From: an uncultured Desulfobacterium sp.
GTDB taxonomy: Bacteria > Desulfobacterota > Desulfobacteria > Desulfobacterales > Desulfobacteraceae
Reading direction: 5' to 3'
Length of the DNA: 9,133 nt
Assembly: GCA_937124525.1 (NCBI GenBank)
Contig: CAKZLA010000523.1
Location: forward strand, 1-9,133
In this document: piece by piece, positions 1-8,153 of the stretch
Layout: each line of letters opens with the position of its first letter
How positions within the stretch are numbered: the stretch's first letter is position 1
The notes under the pieces: model-generated
The model's database searches: none
The model's input: the letters and a program-made list of their open reading frames with translations, nothing else
Told to the model about the DNA's origin: nothing
Made by a program: the position numbers and the translations under genes

Positions 1-454
1 GGTTTGTGAGCCAGGAGATCCTTTCGTTAAGCGTTTTAATAATCTGGAGGCCAATCTTGGGATGCTGCAACACTAATTCTTCAAATTGGCTTCGGCTGAA
101 ACCACATGTAAGTGTGGGCTCAAGACAAACTGCACTGACAGGATACTGCCCTTCTTCAGAGAACATATTCTCCCCTACAAAGTCGCCGGCTTTTCGTATA
201 TCAAGGATTAATTCTGTACCATCTTCAAGAACTTTGGAAAGCTTGACCCGACCGCCTTTGATCAGAAACATTTCATTTGCAGGGTCTCCTTGTAAAAACA
301 AAGATTGACCCTTAGTTAATTTTTTTCTCAAAGCATCATGGCTCAGGGCTTTTATTTCAACAGGATCGAGATTTTCAAATATCCAGAGATTTCCAATGCA
401 GACCGGTGACAGATCAATGTCACCGCCGGCTATTTGTTCACATAAGCAAGTCAT
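1..454 (-). CDS. CRP/FNR-family transcriptional regulator, N-terminal part (cut at left edge)
   Basis: Reading leftward from the ATG at 454, 151 codons stay open to the window edge. AAGGAG (464-459) lies 4 nt before the start. The product begins MTCLCEQIAGGDIDLSPVC and continues into a cyclic-nucleotide-binding-type beta barrel at about residues 20-125, with typical motifs: KGQSLFLQGDPANEMFLIKG (48-67) and AGDFVGENMF (89-98). The C-terminal helix-turn-helix lies outside the window. In E. coli CRP, Arg and Ser in the phosphate-binding loop contact cAMP. Here the matching stretch reads EEGQYPVSAV, with no Arg-Ser, so cAMP is an unlikely effector. Cysteines at 3, 5, 19, 110 and 117 recall the N-terminal plus internal cysteines of FNR, but the spacing is not the classical one. 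An anaerobic redox or NO sensor is a reasonable guess (inference). It is divergent from the flavoprotein gene at 1122. Family assignment is firm; effector and targets are unknown. Confidence 0.85.
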   Translation of the reverse strand, partial: MTCLCEQIAGGDIDLSPVCIGNLWIFENLDPVEIKALSHDALRKKLTKGQSLFLQGDPANEMFLIKGGRVKLSKVLEDGTELILDIRKAGDFVGENMFSEEGQYPVSAVCLEPTLTCGFSRSQFEELVLQHPKIGLQIIKTLNERISWLTN

Positions 455-528: not shown

Positions 529-626
529 ATAACTGCCACGGGCAGACTGTATTGGGATATTGATCTGCCCACAACAAAAAACAAAACCCCAATTATTGCA
601 GTCTCTTAGACGGAGTTTCATATAAA
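529..626 (+). repeat. 98-bp dispersed repeat, copy A
   Basis: This segment aligns without gaps to 8049-8146 (constant offset 7520), with 80 of 98 positions identical by hand count. The most conserved blocks are ATAACTGCCACGGGCAGA at the left and TTAGACGGAG plus TTCATATAAA at the right. The centre (557-566) differs most. Copy A is bounded by a perfect 9-bp inverted repeat, TTTTTATAT (522-530) and ATATAAAAA (620-628). It can form a 7-bp stem GGGCAGA/TCTGCCC (540-546 with 564-570), or alternatively AGACTG and ATTGGG (544-549, 551-556) pairing with CCCAAT and CAGTCT (588-593, 599-604). It lies about 75 bp upstream of the leftward CRP/FNR start. A dispersed intergenic repeat is certain within this window; whether it is a MITE, a structured RNA or a protein-binding element is unknown. 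Confidence 0.75.
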
Positions 627-686
627 AAGTCCCGGCAAACCAAGAGGGACAGCGCTCCATATCTGTCAACATCAAAAAACTTGATC

Positions 687-814
687 CTCGACAGTCTGTT
701 ACGGAATGAATTATTTGCAATAATAATCACAACATGTAGTGGCTTGCTGGAACAACAACCACTACATAGGGTGTTTTTATGAAGACATTCTTAATTCCGT
801 AACAGCCTGTCGAG
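687..814. repeat. 128-bp MITE-like element with 21-bp terminal inverted repeats
   Basis: The left arm 687-707 begins CTCGACAG and ends CTGTTACGGAAT. It is the inverted complement of 794-814, with one mismatch in 21 (T at 695 against G in the inverted right arm). Inside is a second perfect inverted repeat, ATGTAGTGG (734-742) and CCACTACAT (759-767), around a 16-nt loop. The whole can extrude as a long stem with an internal stem-loop. There is no transposase and no ORF of note. No convincing target-site duplication is visible at the borders. The structure fits a non-autonomous miniature transposon or a large protein-binding hairpin. A related single end occurs at 1930-1944. Confidence 0.7.
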
Positions 815-915
815 TATACATAAATCATATTGAATCGTCATTCAAAAATTATTAACAACTAAGCGGGTCTGATTATATCCGGTCTGATATCTTCCATTTA
901 GGGGTTGATCATAAG

Positions 916-1095
916 ATGGGCCACTATAGGGTAGATAAAATTCTATCCATCGTAAATACTTGTAATAATAGAGCTTATTTTTCACTTATAAAATTCCAAC
1001 ACGATGAACAAACAAAATATAGAATAAGACCTTACATTGTAGCCGTTGCTACAGAATATTTGTACCCAAGGATATATGGTGCAAATACTTATTAA
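916..1095 (+). CDS. doubtful small ORF, 59 codons, no recognised family
   Basis: An ATG at 916 opens a frame ending at TAA 1093-1095. The product starts MGHYRVDKILSIVNTC and ends YGANTY. The frame is also open upstream back to about 856 but offers no ATG, GTG or TTG start there. A weak AGGGG (900-904) lies 11 nt before the ATG. The stretch is AT-rich, where a run of about 80 codons without a stop is somewhat unusual. No domain, signal peptide or membrane helix is recognised. It contains the palindrome at 1038-1053 and runs almost to the ribosome binding site of the flavoprotein gene, which argues against a real gene. It may be a decayed remnant or chance. Confidence 0.2.
   Translation: MGHYRVDKILSIVNTCNNRAYFSLIKFQHDEQTKYRIRPYIVAVATEYLYPRIYGANTY
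1038..1053. promoter_or_regulatory. putative CRP/FNR-family operator
   Basis: TGTAGCCGTTGCTACA is a perfect 6-4-6 inverted repeat. Read as TGTAG-N6-CTACA, it has exactly the 5-6-5 geometry of a CRP site (TGTGA-N6-TCACA). It lies 68 bp before the start codon of the flavoprotein gene, and the divergent gene encodes a CRP/FNR regulator, its most likely binder. Possible promoter elements just downstream (TTGTAC at 1060-1065, ATACTT at 1085-1090) are poor matches. Confidence 0.45.
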
Positions 1096-1121: not shown

Positions 1122-1775
1122 ATGAAACCTCAGATTTTAGGAATTTCAGGTAGTCCCATAAAAAACAGTAACACAGATCGTTTGGTTAAGGCAGTTCTTG
1201 ATAGCAGCGGCCTGGAATCAGAATTTGTAAAATTAAGCAAACTTAATGTAAAACCATGCATCGCCTGCCTTGGATGCAAAAAGGACAATATTTGCAAGGT
1301 TAAAGATGATTTTCCTGCATTGGCTGAAAAGGTCCGAAAAGCAGATGCCATTGTTGTGGGGGGATATTCGCCCTATGGCTCTGTTGATGGATTTACAAAG
1401 TCCTTTCTTGAAAGATTGTTTTCTTTGCGGCATCAAAATGGTCTGAACCGGGGCAAGTTTGCCGTTGTTGTGGCCACAGGCATTGGCCGGGGGGCTCCAG
1501 GGCTCGAAGAGACAAGCAAACAGATTGAGCATGCTCTGACGGTAGAGGGTATGGAAATACTGGGCAATCTAAAAGCCATAGGAAATACTGAATGCATGGT
1601 CTGCGGTTATGGTCAAACATGTCCCATGAGTTCTCTGCCCTGGGTATTTGGAGATGACACCACAATCACCCCGGATAAATTTTGTAAAGTTGAAGACCAG
1701 TCCGAGATTTGGGAGAAAGCCAATCAGTTGGGCCTGGAAATTGCTGAAAAAATCAAAAAACGGGTCTTGATGTAA
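1122..1775 (+). CDS. Isf-like iron-sulfur flavoprotein / NAD(P)H-dependent FMN reductase family
   Basis: This 217-residue protein has the flavodoxin-like fold of the NADPH-dependent FMN reductase superfamily. The N-terminus LGISGSPIKNSNT (6-18) is the FMN phosphate-binding loop, and VVGGYSPYGSVDG (78-90) is the second flavin-contacting loop. The compact motif C46-x2-C49-x2-C52-x5-C58 matches, almost to the residue, the cluster-binding motif of archaeal iron-sulfur flavoprotein Isf, which carries FMN and a [4Fe-4S] cluster and moves electrons in anaerobes. Unusually, a second cluster C158-x2-C161-x5-C167, with C188 further on, could bind another metal or form disulfides. AAGGAG (1108-1113) with 8-nt spacing supports the ATG. 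The protein is soluble, with no signal peptide. It is divergent from a CRP/FNR regulator and followed 6 nt after its stop by an inverted-repeat element. The electron donor and acceptor cannot be told; reduction of O2, peroxide or quinones is possible for the family. Confidence 0.85.
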   Translation: MKPQILGISGSPIKNSNTDRLVKAVLDSSGLESEFVKLSKLNVKPCIACLGCKKDNICKVKDDFPALAEKVRKADAIVVGGYSPYGSVDGFTKSFLERLFSLRHQNGLNRGKFAVVVATGIGRGAPGLEETSKQIEHALTVEGMEILGNLKAIGNTECMVCGYGQTCPMSSLPWVFGDDTTITPDKFCKVEDQSEIWEKANQLGLEIAEKIKKRVLM

Positions 1776-1781
1776 TATAAT

Positions 1782-1905
1782 ACCTTCGCCAATTTTATTT
1801 TTGCTTCAGTTCTCACCCACATATAGTGTTTTATTGGGTTGTGTTGGCACAATATATAGTGTTTTAATTACCAGATTTCAAATTGATTTTGAATTTGGCG
1901 AAGGT
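1782..1905. repeat. 124-bp MITE-like element with 11-bp inverted repeats and internal direct repeats
   Basis: ACCTTCGCCAA (1782-1792) and TTGGCGAAGGT (1895-1905) are a perfect 11-bp inverted pair. Inside, ATATAGTGTTTTA occurs twice in direct orientation (1821-1833 and 1854-1866), flanking a small hairpin TTGTG-TTGG-CACAA (1839-1852). The layout is nearly symmetrical about that hairpin. The element starts 6 nt after the flavoprotein stop codon. It has no ORF and no visible target duplication. It could be a miniature transposon, a transcription-ending structure or a protein-binding locus; it lacks the T-run of a standard intrinsic terminator. Confidence 0.55.
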
Positions 1906-1929
1906 CTTGTATAGATTTAAACTTTTTAC

Positions 1930-3573: not shown

Positions 3574-6261
3574 ATGGGTACCATCAACATGCACAGGATG
3601 TTTAATCCAAAATCTATTGCTGTCATCGGTGCCGGTGAACGTCAGGGACGTATCGGGGCTGCCATCATGAATAATCTTTTAAAAGGCGAATTCCCCGGTG
3701 AGGTGTACCCGGTGAACCCTAACTACGATGCGGTCATGGGCCTGCCCTGCTTTCCCCATGTGGCAGCCATTGAAAAACCCGTGGACATGGCCATCATTGC
3801 CACCCCCATTAAAGGAGCACCAGACATTGTGGAGGCATGTTCAAATGCCGGGCTTGCCGGGGCCGTTATCATCTCCTCCGGTGGCAAAGAGATGGGGGCA
3901 AGTGGTCGCAGGATAGAAATGCAGATAATGGAAAAGGCTAAAAAAACCAACCTGCGTATCATTGGGCCCAATTGTCTTGGTATTGTTAACACCGCAAAAA
4001 ATTTAAATGCCAGCTTTGCCCATCAATCCCCCCTGGCCGGAAAAATTGCCTTTCTTTCCCAGAGTGGTGCCATTTGCACCTCTGTCCTGGACATGGCCAT
4101 GCGTGAGAATGTAGGGTTTAGCCATTTCGTCAGTCTGGGAACCATGATGGATGTGGATTTCGCGGATATGATCGATTATCTTGGGTCCCTGAATTCCGTT
4201 GAAAGCATTGTCATGTACGTGGAAAACCTTACCAATATCAGAAGCTTCATGAGTGCGGCCCGTTCTGTGTCCCGCATCAAACCCATCATTGCCCTGAAAT
4301 CCGGCCGATCAAAGGCCGGGGCCAGGGCTGCGGCCTCCCATACCGGGGCCTTGGCCGGTGAGGATTCCGTGTACGATGCCGCCTTTAAACGGGCTGGTAT
4401 TTTAAGGGTAAATGAATTTGAGGAGCTCTTTGATTGCGCCGAATTTCTGGCCAAACAAAAACAGCCCCGGGGAAAACGTCTTGCCATTGTCACCAACTCC
4501 GGTGGTCCTGGTGTAATGGCGGCCGATGCCCTGGCGGGCCATGGCTTGGAACCTGCAGAACTCAGCCCGGAAACCATTAAACAACTGGATGAATTTCTCC
4601 CAGCCAACTGGAGCCGGGGGAACCCCGTGGATATCCTGGGGGATTCTCCCCCCCAACATTATCTCCAAGCCGTTCGCATCTGCTTAGATGCACCGGAAGT
4701 CGATGGATTACTCTTGCTCTGTTCACCAGCAGGCACTCTGAATCTGCCGGACCTGGCCCACCCCCTGGCAAAATTGCTGGAAAAAACTCCATGCCCGGTG
4801 TTCACCGCATGGATCGGCGGTTTGGACGTGGACAAAGCCAGACGTATTCTGAACCAGTCTGGCATTATCACCTATGATTCCCCGGAGCGGGCCGTGCGGG
4901 CATTTGTGGACTTATATCAATATGCAGGCAATATCCAGGCCCTCCAAGAGATTCCCATTCGTACAGATAAAAGATTACGCATAGATCGGCCCGGAGCAGC
5001 CCGCATTGTTAAAGCGGGCCTTGATCAGGGCAATGGAGTTCTCACTGAACTTGAAGCCAAAAATCTGCTGGAGGCCTATGGCATCCCTGTAAACCGTACA
5101 GAACTTGCGGTATCCTACGCCCATGCCATGGCCATTGCCGATAATATAGGATTTCCCGTGGTCATGAAAATCTGTTCCAGGGATATCTTGCACAAGTCCG
5201 ATGCCGGAGGAGTGCTGCTGAATCTGGAAGACCTGGATGACGTCAAAATGGGATTTAAGAAACTCATGAAAGAGGCCATGGAATACGCCCCAGAAGCAGA
5301 GATCATGGGGGTTACCATACAGCCCATGTCCCCGGCTCCTGATTATGAATTGATCCTTGGGGCCAAGCAGGACAATGATTTTGGTCCCATATTGCTCTTT
5401 GGTATGGGTGGGGTCCTCACCGAAATTTTCAAAGACATGACAACGGCATTGCCACCCCTGAACCGTCCCCTGGCTCGACGCTTGATCCTGGAAACAAAGA
5501 TATCAAAGGTGCTCCATGGCTATCGCAACATCGAAGCCATTGATATGGAAGCACTGGAAGAGACCCTGATCCGCCTCGGTCGCCTGGTATCGGATTTTCC
5601 GGAAATCCAGGAGATGGATATTAACCCCATGATGGTCAAAAAAGGCCGGTATCTTGCCGTGGACGCAAGGGTATTGTTAAAACCCACCACGGCACCCGCC
5701 AACACCCATCTTGTGATCAGCCCCTATCCCTGGCAGTACGAAGCCGTGGATGAAACCATTGATGGCATTTCTATTTTTATCCGTCCCATCCGCCCCAGTG
5801 ATGCCGCCCTTGTGATTGAACATTTCAACGCCCTGTCCCCCCGCAGCGTCTACATGCGATTTTTCACCCCCATGAAACAGCTTTCTCACACCATGCTCAT
5901 CCGGCTGACCCAGGTTGATTACGACAGGGAAGTTGCCCTGGTGGCCCTTCTCCATGAAGGAGAGGAACAAAAAATGGCTGGCATCGCCCGGGTGATATTT
6001 GAGCCCGATGGCAAAAGTGGAGAATTCGCCGTGGCCGTGGCCGATCAATGGCAGGGCAAGGGCATTGGTGCATCACTGTTGAAACGCTGCCTCACGTATA
6101 CAAAGGATAAGGGCCTGACAAGGGTATGGGGACTTGTAATTGCGGAAAACAGGCAAATGGTGAAATTGGGGAAAAGACTTGGGTTTAATGTCCGTATGGT
6201 ACCCGGATCATCCGAATATGAATTGGAAATAGACCTGACGACCTACAACAAAGGCTTATAA
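3574..6261 (+). CDS. ADP-forming acyl-CoA synthetase fused to GNAT acetyltransferase (Pat-like)
   Basis: The architecture matches bacterial protein lysine acetyltransferase Pat. In order, over 895 residues: a CoA-binding Rossmann domain (10-135, with IAVIGAGERQGRIG), a ligase-CoA domain (about 150-460), an ATP-grasp domain (480-700, with ILHKSDAGGV and EMDINPMM) and a GNAT domain (735-890) whose acetyl-CoA loop is QGKGIG (about 827-832). Glu817 in GEFAVAV sits where Salmonella Pat has its reported catalytic Glu. His256 in SHTGALAG corresponds to the phosphohistidine of ADP-forming acetyl-CoA synthetases, said to be lost in Salmonella Pat. So this protein may still make acyl-CoA as well as transfer acetyl groups. 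The start was set at ATG 3574, with AGGGGG 7 nt upstream; an in-frame TTG at 3535 lacks a ribosome binding site. Likely cytoplasmic targets are acyl-CoA synthetases and possibly the neighbouring Usp. Confidence 0.88.
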   Translation: MGTINMHRMFNPKSIAVIGAGERQGRIGAAIMNNLLKGEFPGEVYPVNPNYDAVMGLPCFPHVAAIEKPVDMAIIATPIKGAPDIVEACSNAGLAGAVIISSGGKEMGASGRRIEMQIMEKAKKTNLRIIGPNCLGIVNTAKNLNASFAHQSPLAGKIAFLSQSGAICTSVLDMAMRENVGFSHFVSLGTMMDVDFADMIDYLGSLNSVESIVMYVENLTNIRSFMSAARSVSRIKPIIALKSGRSKAGARAAASHTGALAGEDSVYDAAFKRAGILRVNEFEELFDCAEFLAKQKQPRGKRLAIVTNSGGPGVMAADALAGHGLEPAELSPETIKQLDEFLPANWSRGNPVDILGDSPPQHYLQAVRICLDAPEVDGLLLLCSPAGTLNLPDLAHPLAKLLEKTPCPVFTAWIGGLDVDKARRILNQSGIITYDSPERAVRAFVDLYQYAGNIQALQEIPIRTDKRLRIDRPGAARIVKAGLDQGNGVLTELEAKNLLEAYGIPVNRTELAVSYAHAMAIADNIGFPVVMKICSRDILHKSDAGGVLLNLEDLDDVKMGFKKLMKEAMEYAPEAEIMGVTIQPMSPAPDYELILGAKQDNDFGPILLFGMGGVLTEIFKDMTTALPPLNRPLARRLILETKISKVLHGYRNIEAIDMEALEETLIRLGRLVSDFPEIQEMDINPMMVKKGRYLAVDARVLLKPTTAPANTHLVISPYPWQYEAVDETIDGISIFIRPIRPSDAALVIEHFNALSPRSVYMRFFTPMKQLSHTMLIRLTQVDYDREVALVALLHEGEEQKMAGIARVIFEPDGKSGEFAVAVADQWQGKGIGASLLKRCLTYTKDKGLTRVWGLVIAENRQMVKLGKRLGFNVRMVPGSSEYELEIDLTTYNKGL

Positions 6262-8040: not shown

Positions 8041-8153
8041 AGTTTCACATAACTGCCACGGGCAGACCGTATTGGGGATCTGGCAAGCCCACAACGAAAA
8101 ATGAAACTCTAATAATTGCAGTCCTTTAGACGGAGCTTCATATAAACTGCCAC
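8041..8153 (+). repeat. 98-bp dispersed repeat, copy B, with tandem-like ends
   Basis: Bases 8049-8146 are the ungapped counterpart of 529-626 (80 of 98 identical). The left flank AGTTTCACATAACTGCCAC (8041-8059) and right flank AGCTTCATATAAACTGCCAC (8134-8153) are near-identical direct repeats. Copy B therefore looks like one full unit of a tandem repeat of about 94 bp, followed by the first bases of another. ATTGGGG (8071-8077) can pair with CTCTAAT (8107-8113) using two G-U pairs where copy A has Watson-Crick pairs. The element fills almost the whole gap between the kinase stop and the ribosome binding site of the first receiver (8167-8172), so it is probably transcribed in the operon mRNA. 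Confidence 0.72.

What the first reader, a model, noticed from the sequence alone, without database searches (positions are those of the whole stretch)
529..626. Ungapped 98-bp repeat shared by two distant intergenic regions
Copy A (529-626) and copy B (8049-8146) align end to end with no insertion or deletion and 80 of 98 matches, although they sit 7.5 kb apart in unrelated contexts: a regulator leader and a gap inside a signalling operon. Mismatches cluster in the middle while both ends are conserved. Substitutions in the one near-open reading frame (minus strand) fall at all codon positions, and copy B has an in-frame stop there, so protein-level constraint is not the cause. It is a candidate for a widespread, undescribed structured or protein-binding repeat.
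Basis: partly seen in the sequence, partly recalled or inferred. Interest (0 to 1): 0.7.

Follow-up and report, generated by a model that had tools for sequence, protein, structure and literature searches.

The report
Hairpin repeats crowding sulfate-reducer genomes
Two look-alike stretches in this DNA are copies of a short, hairpin-forming repeat that seems to have copied itself around the genomes of many sulfate-reducing bacteria, and the enzyme that moves it is not known.

Summary
The repeat is real: 80 of 98 matches, against at most 52 in 20 resampled windows. It belongs to a large family of dispersed elements. In the nearest held genome, Desulfocicer vacuolatum, I estimate 1,000-1,200 copies (187 in 796 kb). 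Copies share a frame, ATAAC-nnnn-CAY-[hairpin 1]-ACAACRAA-nn-ATGAAA-[hairpin 2]-TTTCATATAA, while hairpin sequences differ and keep their pairing (covariation 0.459 against 0.171 shuffled). A strict frame pattern occurs in 66 of 389 Desulfobacterales genomes and 11 of 395 across the phylum, with no reversed-pattern hit listed. Nearly all placed copies are intergenic; one lies in frame inside lpxB. Neighbouring modules stack in one orientation (110 same, 5 opposite). Copy B is absent at the orthologous D. vacuolatum junction, and six copies in another genome are 98% identical with unrelated flanks. I read it as a non-autonomous mobile element. No transposase, target duplication or gene-bearing version was found, so how it moves is open. 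It resembles MITE, REPIN, BOX and PATE elements but fails defining tests of REPIN and attC. Rfam and seven literature searches do not describe it; one unread supplement could.

The parts
529..626 (+). copy A of the element (long, P-type body), upstream of the cNMP-regulator gene
   Evidence: 80/98 with copy B; covariance-model match 525-628, 74.1 bits (copy A was one of the 52 sequences the model was built from)
540..570 (+). copy A hairpin 1 (GGGCAGA...TCTGCCC)
   Evidence: covarying helix in A1, A2 and A3
571..578 (+). copy A linker box ACAACRAA
   Evidence: mostly conserved in A1; conserved across genomes
581..621 (+). copy A hairpin 2; 5' arm 581-589 is degenerate, 3' arm 613-621
   Evidence: covarying helix; coordinates from the alignment
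616..625 (+). copy A 3' end box TTTCATATAA
490..518 (-). head of a related S-type module in opposite orientation next to copy A (weak, 18.1 bits)
8049..8146 (+). copy B of the element, between sensor kinase and response regulator; absent from the orthologous D. vacuolatum junction
   Evidence: covariance-model match 8045-8148, 65.2 bits (in the model's building set)
8060..8090 (+). copy B hairpin 1 (partly degraded at positions 35-38 of the repeat)
8091..8098 (+). copy B linker box ACAACGAA
8101..8141 (+). copy B hairpin 2 (arms ATGAAACTC 8101-8109 and GAGCTTCAT 8133-8141)
8136..8145 (+). copy B 3' end box (CTTCATATAA, one change from consensus)

Best explanation
Copies A and B are members of a family of short (about 70-105 nt) non-autonomous mobile DNA elements of Desulfobacterales. 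SHOWN: a constant frame (ATAAC, CAY, ACAACRAA, ATGAAA/TTTCAT, ATAA) holds two hairpins whose sequence is free but whose pairing is kept. Copies sit almost always between genes, in both orientations, and occur head-to-tail with other modules that use the same frame. Copy B is absent at an orthologous junction, one D. vacuolatum copy sits in frame inside lpxB, and near-identical recent copies have unrelated flanks. INFERRED: an enzyme supplied in trans recognises the frame and the hairpins, probably in folded single-stranded DNA, and inserts a copy in AT-rich sequence, often right after the TTTCATAT end of an older copy, without a detectable target duplication. Repeated insertion there builds the same-orientation arrays. 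In the host the copies are mostly tolerated passengers; where one lies inside an operon, as copy B does, its hairpins may change expression of the downstream gene (not shown).
For: Copy number: 187 merged copies in 796 kb of D. vacuolatum; 285 head and 291 tail pattern matches genome-wide, 0 for the reversed controls. Structure: covariation score 0.459 vs 0.171 in A2, 0.289 vs 0.087 in A3, 0.204 vs 0.144 in A1, each 0/500 shuffles as high. Frame: 21 model-found sequences (a few with changes in a box) and 66 of 389 genomes with a strict pattern and no control hit listed. Position: 168 of 187 between called genes, 18 at stretch ends, 1 inside a called gene; 0 of 32 in called ORFs in G695. Mobility: copy B missing at the D. 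vacuolatum kinase-regulator junction; R and S modules lie in a gap there that is empty in the window; the lpxB copy adds about 29 residues at a place where solved LpxB has none; six of eight fetched G695 copies are 98.2% identical with 200-nt flanks at 24-26% identity. Arrays: 110 of 115 adjacent module pairs in the same orientation. No target duplication beyond chance in 19 copies filtered as single.
Against: No transposase found: 0 elements at 30 Y1 loci, of which only 12 are in carrier genomes, and no ORF-bearing version in 796 kb or 800 kb. One partial element does lie about 0.6 kb from a Y1 gene in L139, as the density would lead one to expect. A lagging-strand bias, expected for single-strand transposition, is not significant in G019: 25/17 vs 25/31 clusters, p=0.16. 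Y1 genes are in 34 of 39 relatives whether or not they carry the element. The first 400 kb showed an orientation bias with genes (22 same, 9 opposite, p=0.029) that the next 396 kb did not (38, 36); together 60 and 45, p=0.17, or 41 and 26 per gap, p=0.086. G-T outnumbers A-C in hairpin 1 (45:25 in A1), but no more than column composition predicts (p=0.54 in A1, 0.10 in A2), so DNA-level folding is not proved. The count of pairs changed on both sides is less striking than the score: 90, 4 and 15 of 500 shuffles reach it. The stretch missing in D. vacuolatum around copy B is 167 nt and includes the last 48 nt of the kinase gene. Single copies fold only modestly better than shuffles (z -0.65 to -1.92).
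Confidence: 0.75

Rival explanations
1. It is a structured regulatory RNA (leader, attenuator or sRNA), and its copies control neighbouring genes.
For: Covariation; in many copies segment 'a' can pair with hairpin-1 segment 'b' instead of 'c' (a-b exact 5/5 in 38 of 67 copies vs mean 16.0 shuffled); some copies end just before a ribosome-binding site, and copy B lies within an operon; a leaning to gene orientation in the first 400 kb (22 to 9) and, per gap, over all (41 to 26, p=0.086).
Against: Tail faces a gene start 93 times and a gene stop 75 times; variable distances; convergent gaps are densest (30 copies in 21.1 kb, against 105 in 90.1 kb codirectional and 33 in 43.4 kb divergent); no excess of G-U over A-C beyond composition; absent at an orthologous junction; one copy inside lpxB.
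Confidence: 0.12
2. It is a PATE-like derivative of an IS200/IS605 element: left-end and right-end hairpins moved by a TnpA (Y1) enzyme in trans.
For: Ends-only layout with a hairpin at each end, no terminal inverted repeats, no detected target duplication, insertion next to short AT-rich sequence; PMC7290912 passages describe the same features for IS200/IS605 and PATEs. Y1 genes are common in these genomes.
Against: None of 30 Y1 loci carries these ends, 12 of them in carrier genomes; the nine of ten loci printed show other ends or none that I could recognise by eye; no significant replichore strand bias; guide pairing to the left flank not recognisable by eye; left and right hairpins differ.
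Confidence: 0.3
3. It spreads by an RNA intermediate (SINE-like or retron-like), primed at T-rich/A-rich sites.
For: Right flanks are A-rich (32 copies) and left flanks T-rich (38 copies); structured RNA-like body; two nested junctions lack the rest of the older element.
Against: No clear strand asymmetry of wobble intermediates; no target duplication; only 1 of 32 G695 matches starts beyond model position 5, so 5' truncation is rare there. Reverse transcriptases were not searched.
Confidence: 0.1
4. It is a chromosomal binding site kept by the host (nucleoid protein or segregation site) and not a mobile element.
For: High copy number, intergenic, constant boxes.
Against: Uneven across relatives (66 of 389 genomes), genome-specific hairpins, tandem mosaics, absent at an orthologous junction.
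Confidence: 0.05

Closest known systems
REP / REPIN with RAYT transposases (PMC3116915, PMC2817692, PMC3733652: search listing with start of abstract)
   Same: Short palindromic intergenic repeats, hundreds of copies, composite arrays, thought to be moved in trans
   Different: Two unlike hairpins in a fixed 70-105-nt frame; arrays head-to-tail instead of alternating; no element at the Y1 loci tested; the one D. vacuolatum Y1 locus printed in full (L113) has inverted copies of another repeat beside the gene (by eye)
PATE / IS200-IS605 ends-only elements (PMC7290912, passages)
   Same: Hairpin at each end, no terminal inverted repeats, no target duplication
   Different: No related full-length IS found here; far more copies than the single PATE-like element in that paper; interchangeable hairpins within a constant frame
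BOX, RUP and SPRITE of pneumococci (PMC3049150, abstract and section list)
   Same: Small interspersed repeats with extensive secondary structure, judged parasitic, low present-day transposition rate
   Different: Found almost only in pneumococcus and S. mitis; here several modules share one end frame and stack in one orientation. No sequence comparison with BOX was run
Mobile/repeat sequence candidates such as MRSC-65-2 (PMC11109978, passages)
   Same: Multi-copy structured motif, orientation to genes not constant, possibly acting as DNA
   Different: MRSC-65-2 is a single long stem with a UYCCGG repeat; the supplement with the other candidates (250 counted) was not readable here, so identity with one of them is not excluded
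Enterobacterial RU elements that also occur inside genes (PMC2759123, search listing with start of abstract)
   Same: Small mobile repeats of about 100-170 bp, mostly intergenic, some read as part of a protein
   Different: Different host group and length classes; no sequence comparison was run

Membership tests
MITE in the broad sense (short non-autonomous mobile repeat) | Short, non-coding, many copies in unrelated flanks | tested here: met
MITE in the broad sense (short non-autonomous mobile repeat) | Terminal inverted repeats and target-site duplication | tested here: not met
   No direct repeat between flanks beyond chance in 19 of 67 copies filtered as single (the filter let through at least one array member); outer ends ATAAC / TTTCATATAA are not inverted repeats of each other (seen directly). 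Flank inverted complementarity was p=0.028 at one of four lengths tried
MITE in the broad sense (short non-autonomous mobile repeat) | Ends shared with an autonomous element | tested here: inconclusive
   None in 796 kb of G001 or 800 kb of G695; most of both genomes unread
REP/REPIN | 20-40-bp palindrome tagged at one end (GTAG or CGTC), arrays in alternating orientation | tested here: not met
   Two hairpins in 70-105 nt; 110 same vs 5 opposite orientation
REP/REPIN | Associated RAYT (Y1_Tnp) flanked by the repeat | tested here: not met
   0 elements at 30 Y1 loci, one per genome, 12 in carriers; a partial element about 0.6 kb from one further Y1 gene, with another ORF between. Many Y1 genes not inspected
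IS200/IS605 PATE | Hairpins at both ends, no TIR, no TSD | tested here: met
IS200/IS605 PATE | Ends identical to those of a resident IS200/IS605 | tested here: not met
   Nine Y1 loci printed, other ends or none recognisable by eye; many further Y1 genes not inspected
IS200/IS605 PATE | Orientation bias to the lagging strand | tested here: not met
   25/17 vs 25/31, p=0.16 in G019, terminus set at 2.7 Mb by eye from GC skew; old insertions could blur it
Integron attC | R'' RYYYAAC and R' GTTRRRY ends, cassettes with ORFs | tested here: not met
   3' end is TTTCATATAA with no GTTRRRY box (seen directly); attC boxes recalled, no attC model run
Rfam RNA families | Match above gathering score on the element | tested here: not met
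   Only a sub-threshold cyano-S1 hit in the window; none of the 6 matches in 20 further loci overlaps an element
BOX | boxA/boxB/boxC sequences | not tested
   No BOX model run

The most novel reading that the evidence does not exclude
A distinct transposition system of Desulfobacterales: an element defined not by sequence but by a constant frame of single-stranded boxes around two freely evolving hairpins, into which different bodies can be fitted, moved by an enzyme of a family not yet linked to such ends. Each host lineage re-evolves its own hairpins, and the same frame builds same-orientation mosaics that fill about 3% of one genome.
Probability: 0.3. Interest if true: 0.8.

Novelty: new variant of a known kind. 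Interest (0 to 1): 0.6.

Why it matters
If right, a group of marine sulfate reducers carries a heavy load of short mobile DNA: the repeat modules cover about 3.2% of the D. vacuolatum DNA sampled and, by my estimate from the called genes, about 15% of its intergenic part. I made no comparison with other bacteria. Part of the repetitive DNA that was counted but not characterised in the Desulfobacterium autotrophicum genome paper may be this element. It gives a concrete search handle for an unknown transposase, a marker for annotation and assembly in this group, and a natural set of hairpins in which sequence is free but shape is selected.

Tried and rejected
Protein-coding cause: substitutions fall in all codon phases. 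Known RNA: Rfam negative on the copies. Plasmid and phage records: none. Exact pattern over genome contigs: 0. Viral contigs: a 16-mer gave 14 contigs that I took as chance and did not follow; longer patterns gave 0. RAYT/Y1 partner: one search shows Y1 in 34 of 39 genomes, no element at 30 loci; I reckoned by eye that strong Y1 hits are somewhat commoner in carriers, but high-copy G001 and carrier G018 lack one, so I count this as inconclusive. Orphan heads with long ORFs downstream: six ORFs tested were ordinary genes (Usp, aat, isochorismatase, symporter, MFS, MaoC). The list seemed to show all-plus copies in half of G019; a minus copy known was missing from it, so the list was cut unevenly and I discarded it and used (122 of its 142 G019 matches were listed and used). 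'a' pairing with 'b' is a property of many copies, not of the whole superfamily. I also added the orientation bias of the first 400 kb and the wobble test against composition.

Literature: searches (one found no paper). The claim that the family is not in print rests on these alone and on a library of open papers. PMC2702500 was read as passages: 2357 exact repeats of 50 bp or more, not characterised there.

Full report
Observation. Copies A (529-626) and B (8049-8146) match at 80 of 98 ungapped positions; 20 Markov resamplings of the window reach at most 52. Rfam gives nothing above threshold. Single copies fold only modestly better than shuffles, so structure had to be tested with relatives.

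Host. No genome is held for the window. The 895-aa CoA-ligase/acetyltransferase-like gene of the window (3574-6258) has its closest held relative in Desulfocicer vacuolatum DSM 3385 (L015, 88% identity), which lies in genome G001.

Copy number. Copy B finds 47 places in G001 and only noise in two more distant genomes. An iterated profile finds 83 copies in 20 stretches of 20 kb placed on a grid (82 with the final profile) and 110 in a further 396 kb; merged, 187 in 796 kb, that is about 1,000-1,200 in 5.0 Mb. Both sets were placed on round coordinates, but on contigs known to carry copies. Strict patterns over the whole genome give 285 heads and 291 tails, with 0 for the patterns read backwards. 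G019 has 142 and G018 50 model matches among 150 candidates scored in each; G695 has 32 merged copies in 800 kb.

Anatomy. D. vacuolatum has a common 86-nt type and the longer type seen in the window. They fit one frame: ATAAC, a few bases, CAY, hairpin 1, ACAACRAA, two or so bases, ATGAAA opening hairpin 2, and TTTCATATAA closing it. Of the 24 matches, the 21 printed show this frame with different hairpins; some deviate in a box (for example L149, L153, L154). Twenty more examples, one per genome, were picked by the 3' boxes themselves, so only their 5' part (AAC, CAT, hairpin 1 in most) is independent. Other modules in D. vacuolatum use the frame too: S and V wholly; R has the head but a GC-rich body of about 150 nt and the end TGTATATAA.

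Structure. On 52 sequences (window plus 50 from D. vacuolatum, aligned by sequence) the named helices score 0.204 against 0.144 in shuffles. On 50 model matches from the window and other genomes (41 distinct) the score is 0.459 against 0.171, with 15 of 18 pairs changed on both sides, and on 24 further matches 0.289 against 0.087; 0 of 500 shuffles reach these scores. The number of pairs changed on both sides is reached by 90, 4 and 15 of 500 shuffles. The last two alignments were fitted to the model and lean towards it, and shuffles do not correct for relatedness; sliding the partners lowers every score (same calls). In many copies a short segment before hairpin 1 can pair with its 5' arm instead (38 of 67 exact against a shuffled mean of 16), but this is not general. 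G-T exceeds A-C in hairpin 1 (45:25 in A1; 50:25 over both helices in A2), yet not beyond what column composition predicts (p=0.54 and 0.10); this neither shows nor excludes selection on one RNA strand.

Position. Of 187 copies, 168 lie in gaps between called genes, 18 at stretch ends and 1 inside a called gene (genes were called with a simple codon model of my own). Density per kb is 1.4 in convergent, 1.2 in codirectional and 0.8 in divergent gaps. Orientation relative to codirectional genes is 60 to 45 (p=0.17); the first 400 kb gave 22 to 9 (p=0.029), the next 396 kb 38 to 36; counted once per gap it is 41 to 26 (p=0.086). Adjacent modules are in the same orientation in 110 of 115 pairs, and 82 of 159 clusters are composite. 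Together the modules cover 25.4 kb of 796 kb (3.2%).

The copy inside a gene. L174 12351-12439 (minus) lies within an open frame of 422 codons that is lpxB (PF02684, E=4.6e-90). Solved LpxB chains match residues 15-245 and 301-387 to 5-240 and 267-354, so about 29 residues are extra just where the element (residues about 253-282) is read through in frame. A copy inserted in a conserved gene without closing its frame is direct evidence of insertion. I did not test whether the protein works.

Mobility. The window and L015 align on both sides of copy B (kinase 84%, regulator 86% DNA identity) with nothing between in L015; the missing stretch is 167 nt and includes the last 48 nt of the window's kinase gene, so it is not a clean single-element difference. 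Conversely L015 has R and S modules between the ligase gene and the kinase where the window has none. Near copy A, a 3.5-kb locus of G019 with the orthologous cNMP and FMN-reductase genes has no element, though the cNMP gene is inverted there. Among 118 full copies in D. vacuolatum the nearest-neighbour identity has median 0.909, and 6 have a neighbour at 0.98 or more. In G695 six of the eight copies fetched are 98.2% identical over 94 nt with flanks at 24-26% identity, which shows recent spread; the other two belong to other subfamilies. All six have ACT before AAC; whether that is element or target is open. No target duplication appears beyond chance in 19 copies filtered as single out of 67.

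Spread. The covariance model finds 27 of 242 order-level genomes at E<=1e-3 (17 candidates scored per genome), of which 15 reach 1e-5 by my count of the listing, and 4 of 395 phylum-level genomes at 1e-5 (10 scored). The strict frame pattern, drawn up after seeing some of these genomes, finds 66 of 389 order-level and 11 of 395 phylum-level genomes, with no reversed-pattern hit listed in either sample. Carriers G001 and G119 occur in both samples. Plasmids, phages and viral contigs gave none.

Mechanism. Shown: dispersal, structure, frame, mostly intergenic position, same-orientation stacking. Inferred: an enzyme in trans that reads the frame and hairpins. The nearest mechanistic model is ends-only IS200/IS605 transposition, which fits the hairpins, the missing inverted repeats and the missing duplication. 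Against it stand the absence of these ends at 30 Y1 loci, 12 of them in carriers, and the non-significant replichore bias. I could not find the enzyme: 796 kb of G001 and 800 kb of G695 hold no gene-bearing version that I could recognise. I give about 0.3 to the IS200/IS605-like route and 0.1 to an RNA intermediate.

Verdict. The finding is correct and understated. It is a new variant of the known kind 'short structured dispersed mobile repeats'. The claim that it is undescribed rests on Rfam and seven literature searches; one paper's unread supplement (PMC11109978) could contain it.

Noticed in passing
L174 12351-12439 (D. vacuolatum, G001:C37): A copy of the element lies in frame inside lpxB and adds about 29 residues to the predicted protein.
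   Followed up: partly
window 684-817: Second inverted-repeat element (59-nt arms, 71% complementary) with a 74% match at G001:C63:74320-74453; another MITE-like family.
   Followed up: partly
window 884-998: Third dispersed repeat: parts match three other places in D. vacuolatum (C47:157459, C37:85808, C75:114563).
   Followed up: no
window 1775-1912 and 1971-2176: Two further inverted-repeat structures (arms 86% and 90% complementary), MITE-like.
   Followed up: no
window 2-451 and 1122-1775; L200: cNMP-regulator and FMN-reductase genes are neighbours in G019 too, but the cNMP gene is inverted between the two genomes; the window stretch between them holds several repeats.
   Followed up: partly
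D. vacuolatum stretches L050-L069, L160-L179: Module R, a GC-rich hairpin of about 150 nt, 70 copies in 796 kb, often joined to the element in the same orientation.
   Followed up: partly
L136 near 14286; L271 near 17861: Two nested junctions where a new copy begins inside an older one and the rest of the older copy is missing.
   Followed up: no
L220 664-709 and 791-836: Two Acido-Lenti-1 (RF01687) matches above gathering score in the same locus as an element, pointing opposite ways.
   Followed up: no
L113: A RAYT-like gene of D. vacuolatum with inverted copies of a different repeat (GTCAGGCTTCGCTTATTG) beside it, seen by eye.
   Followed up: no
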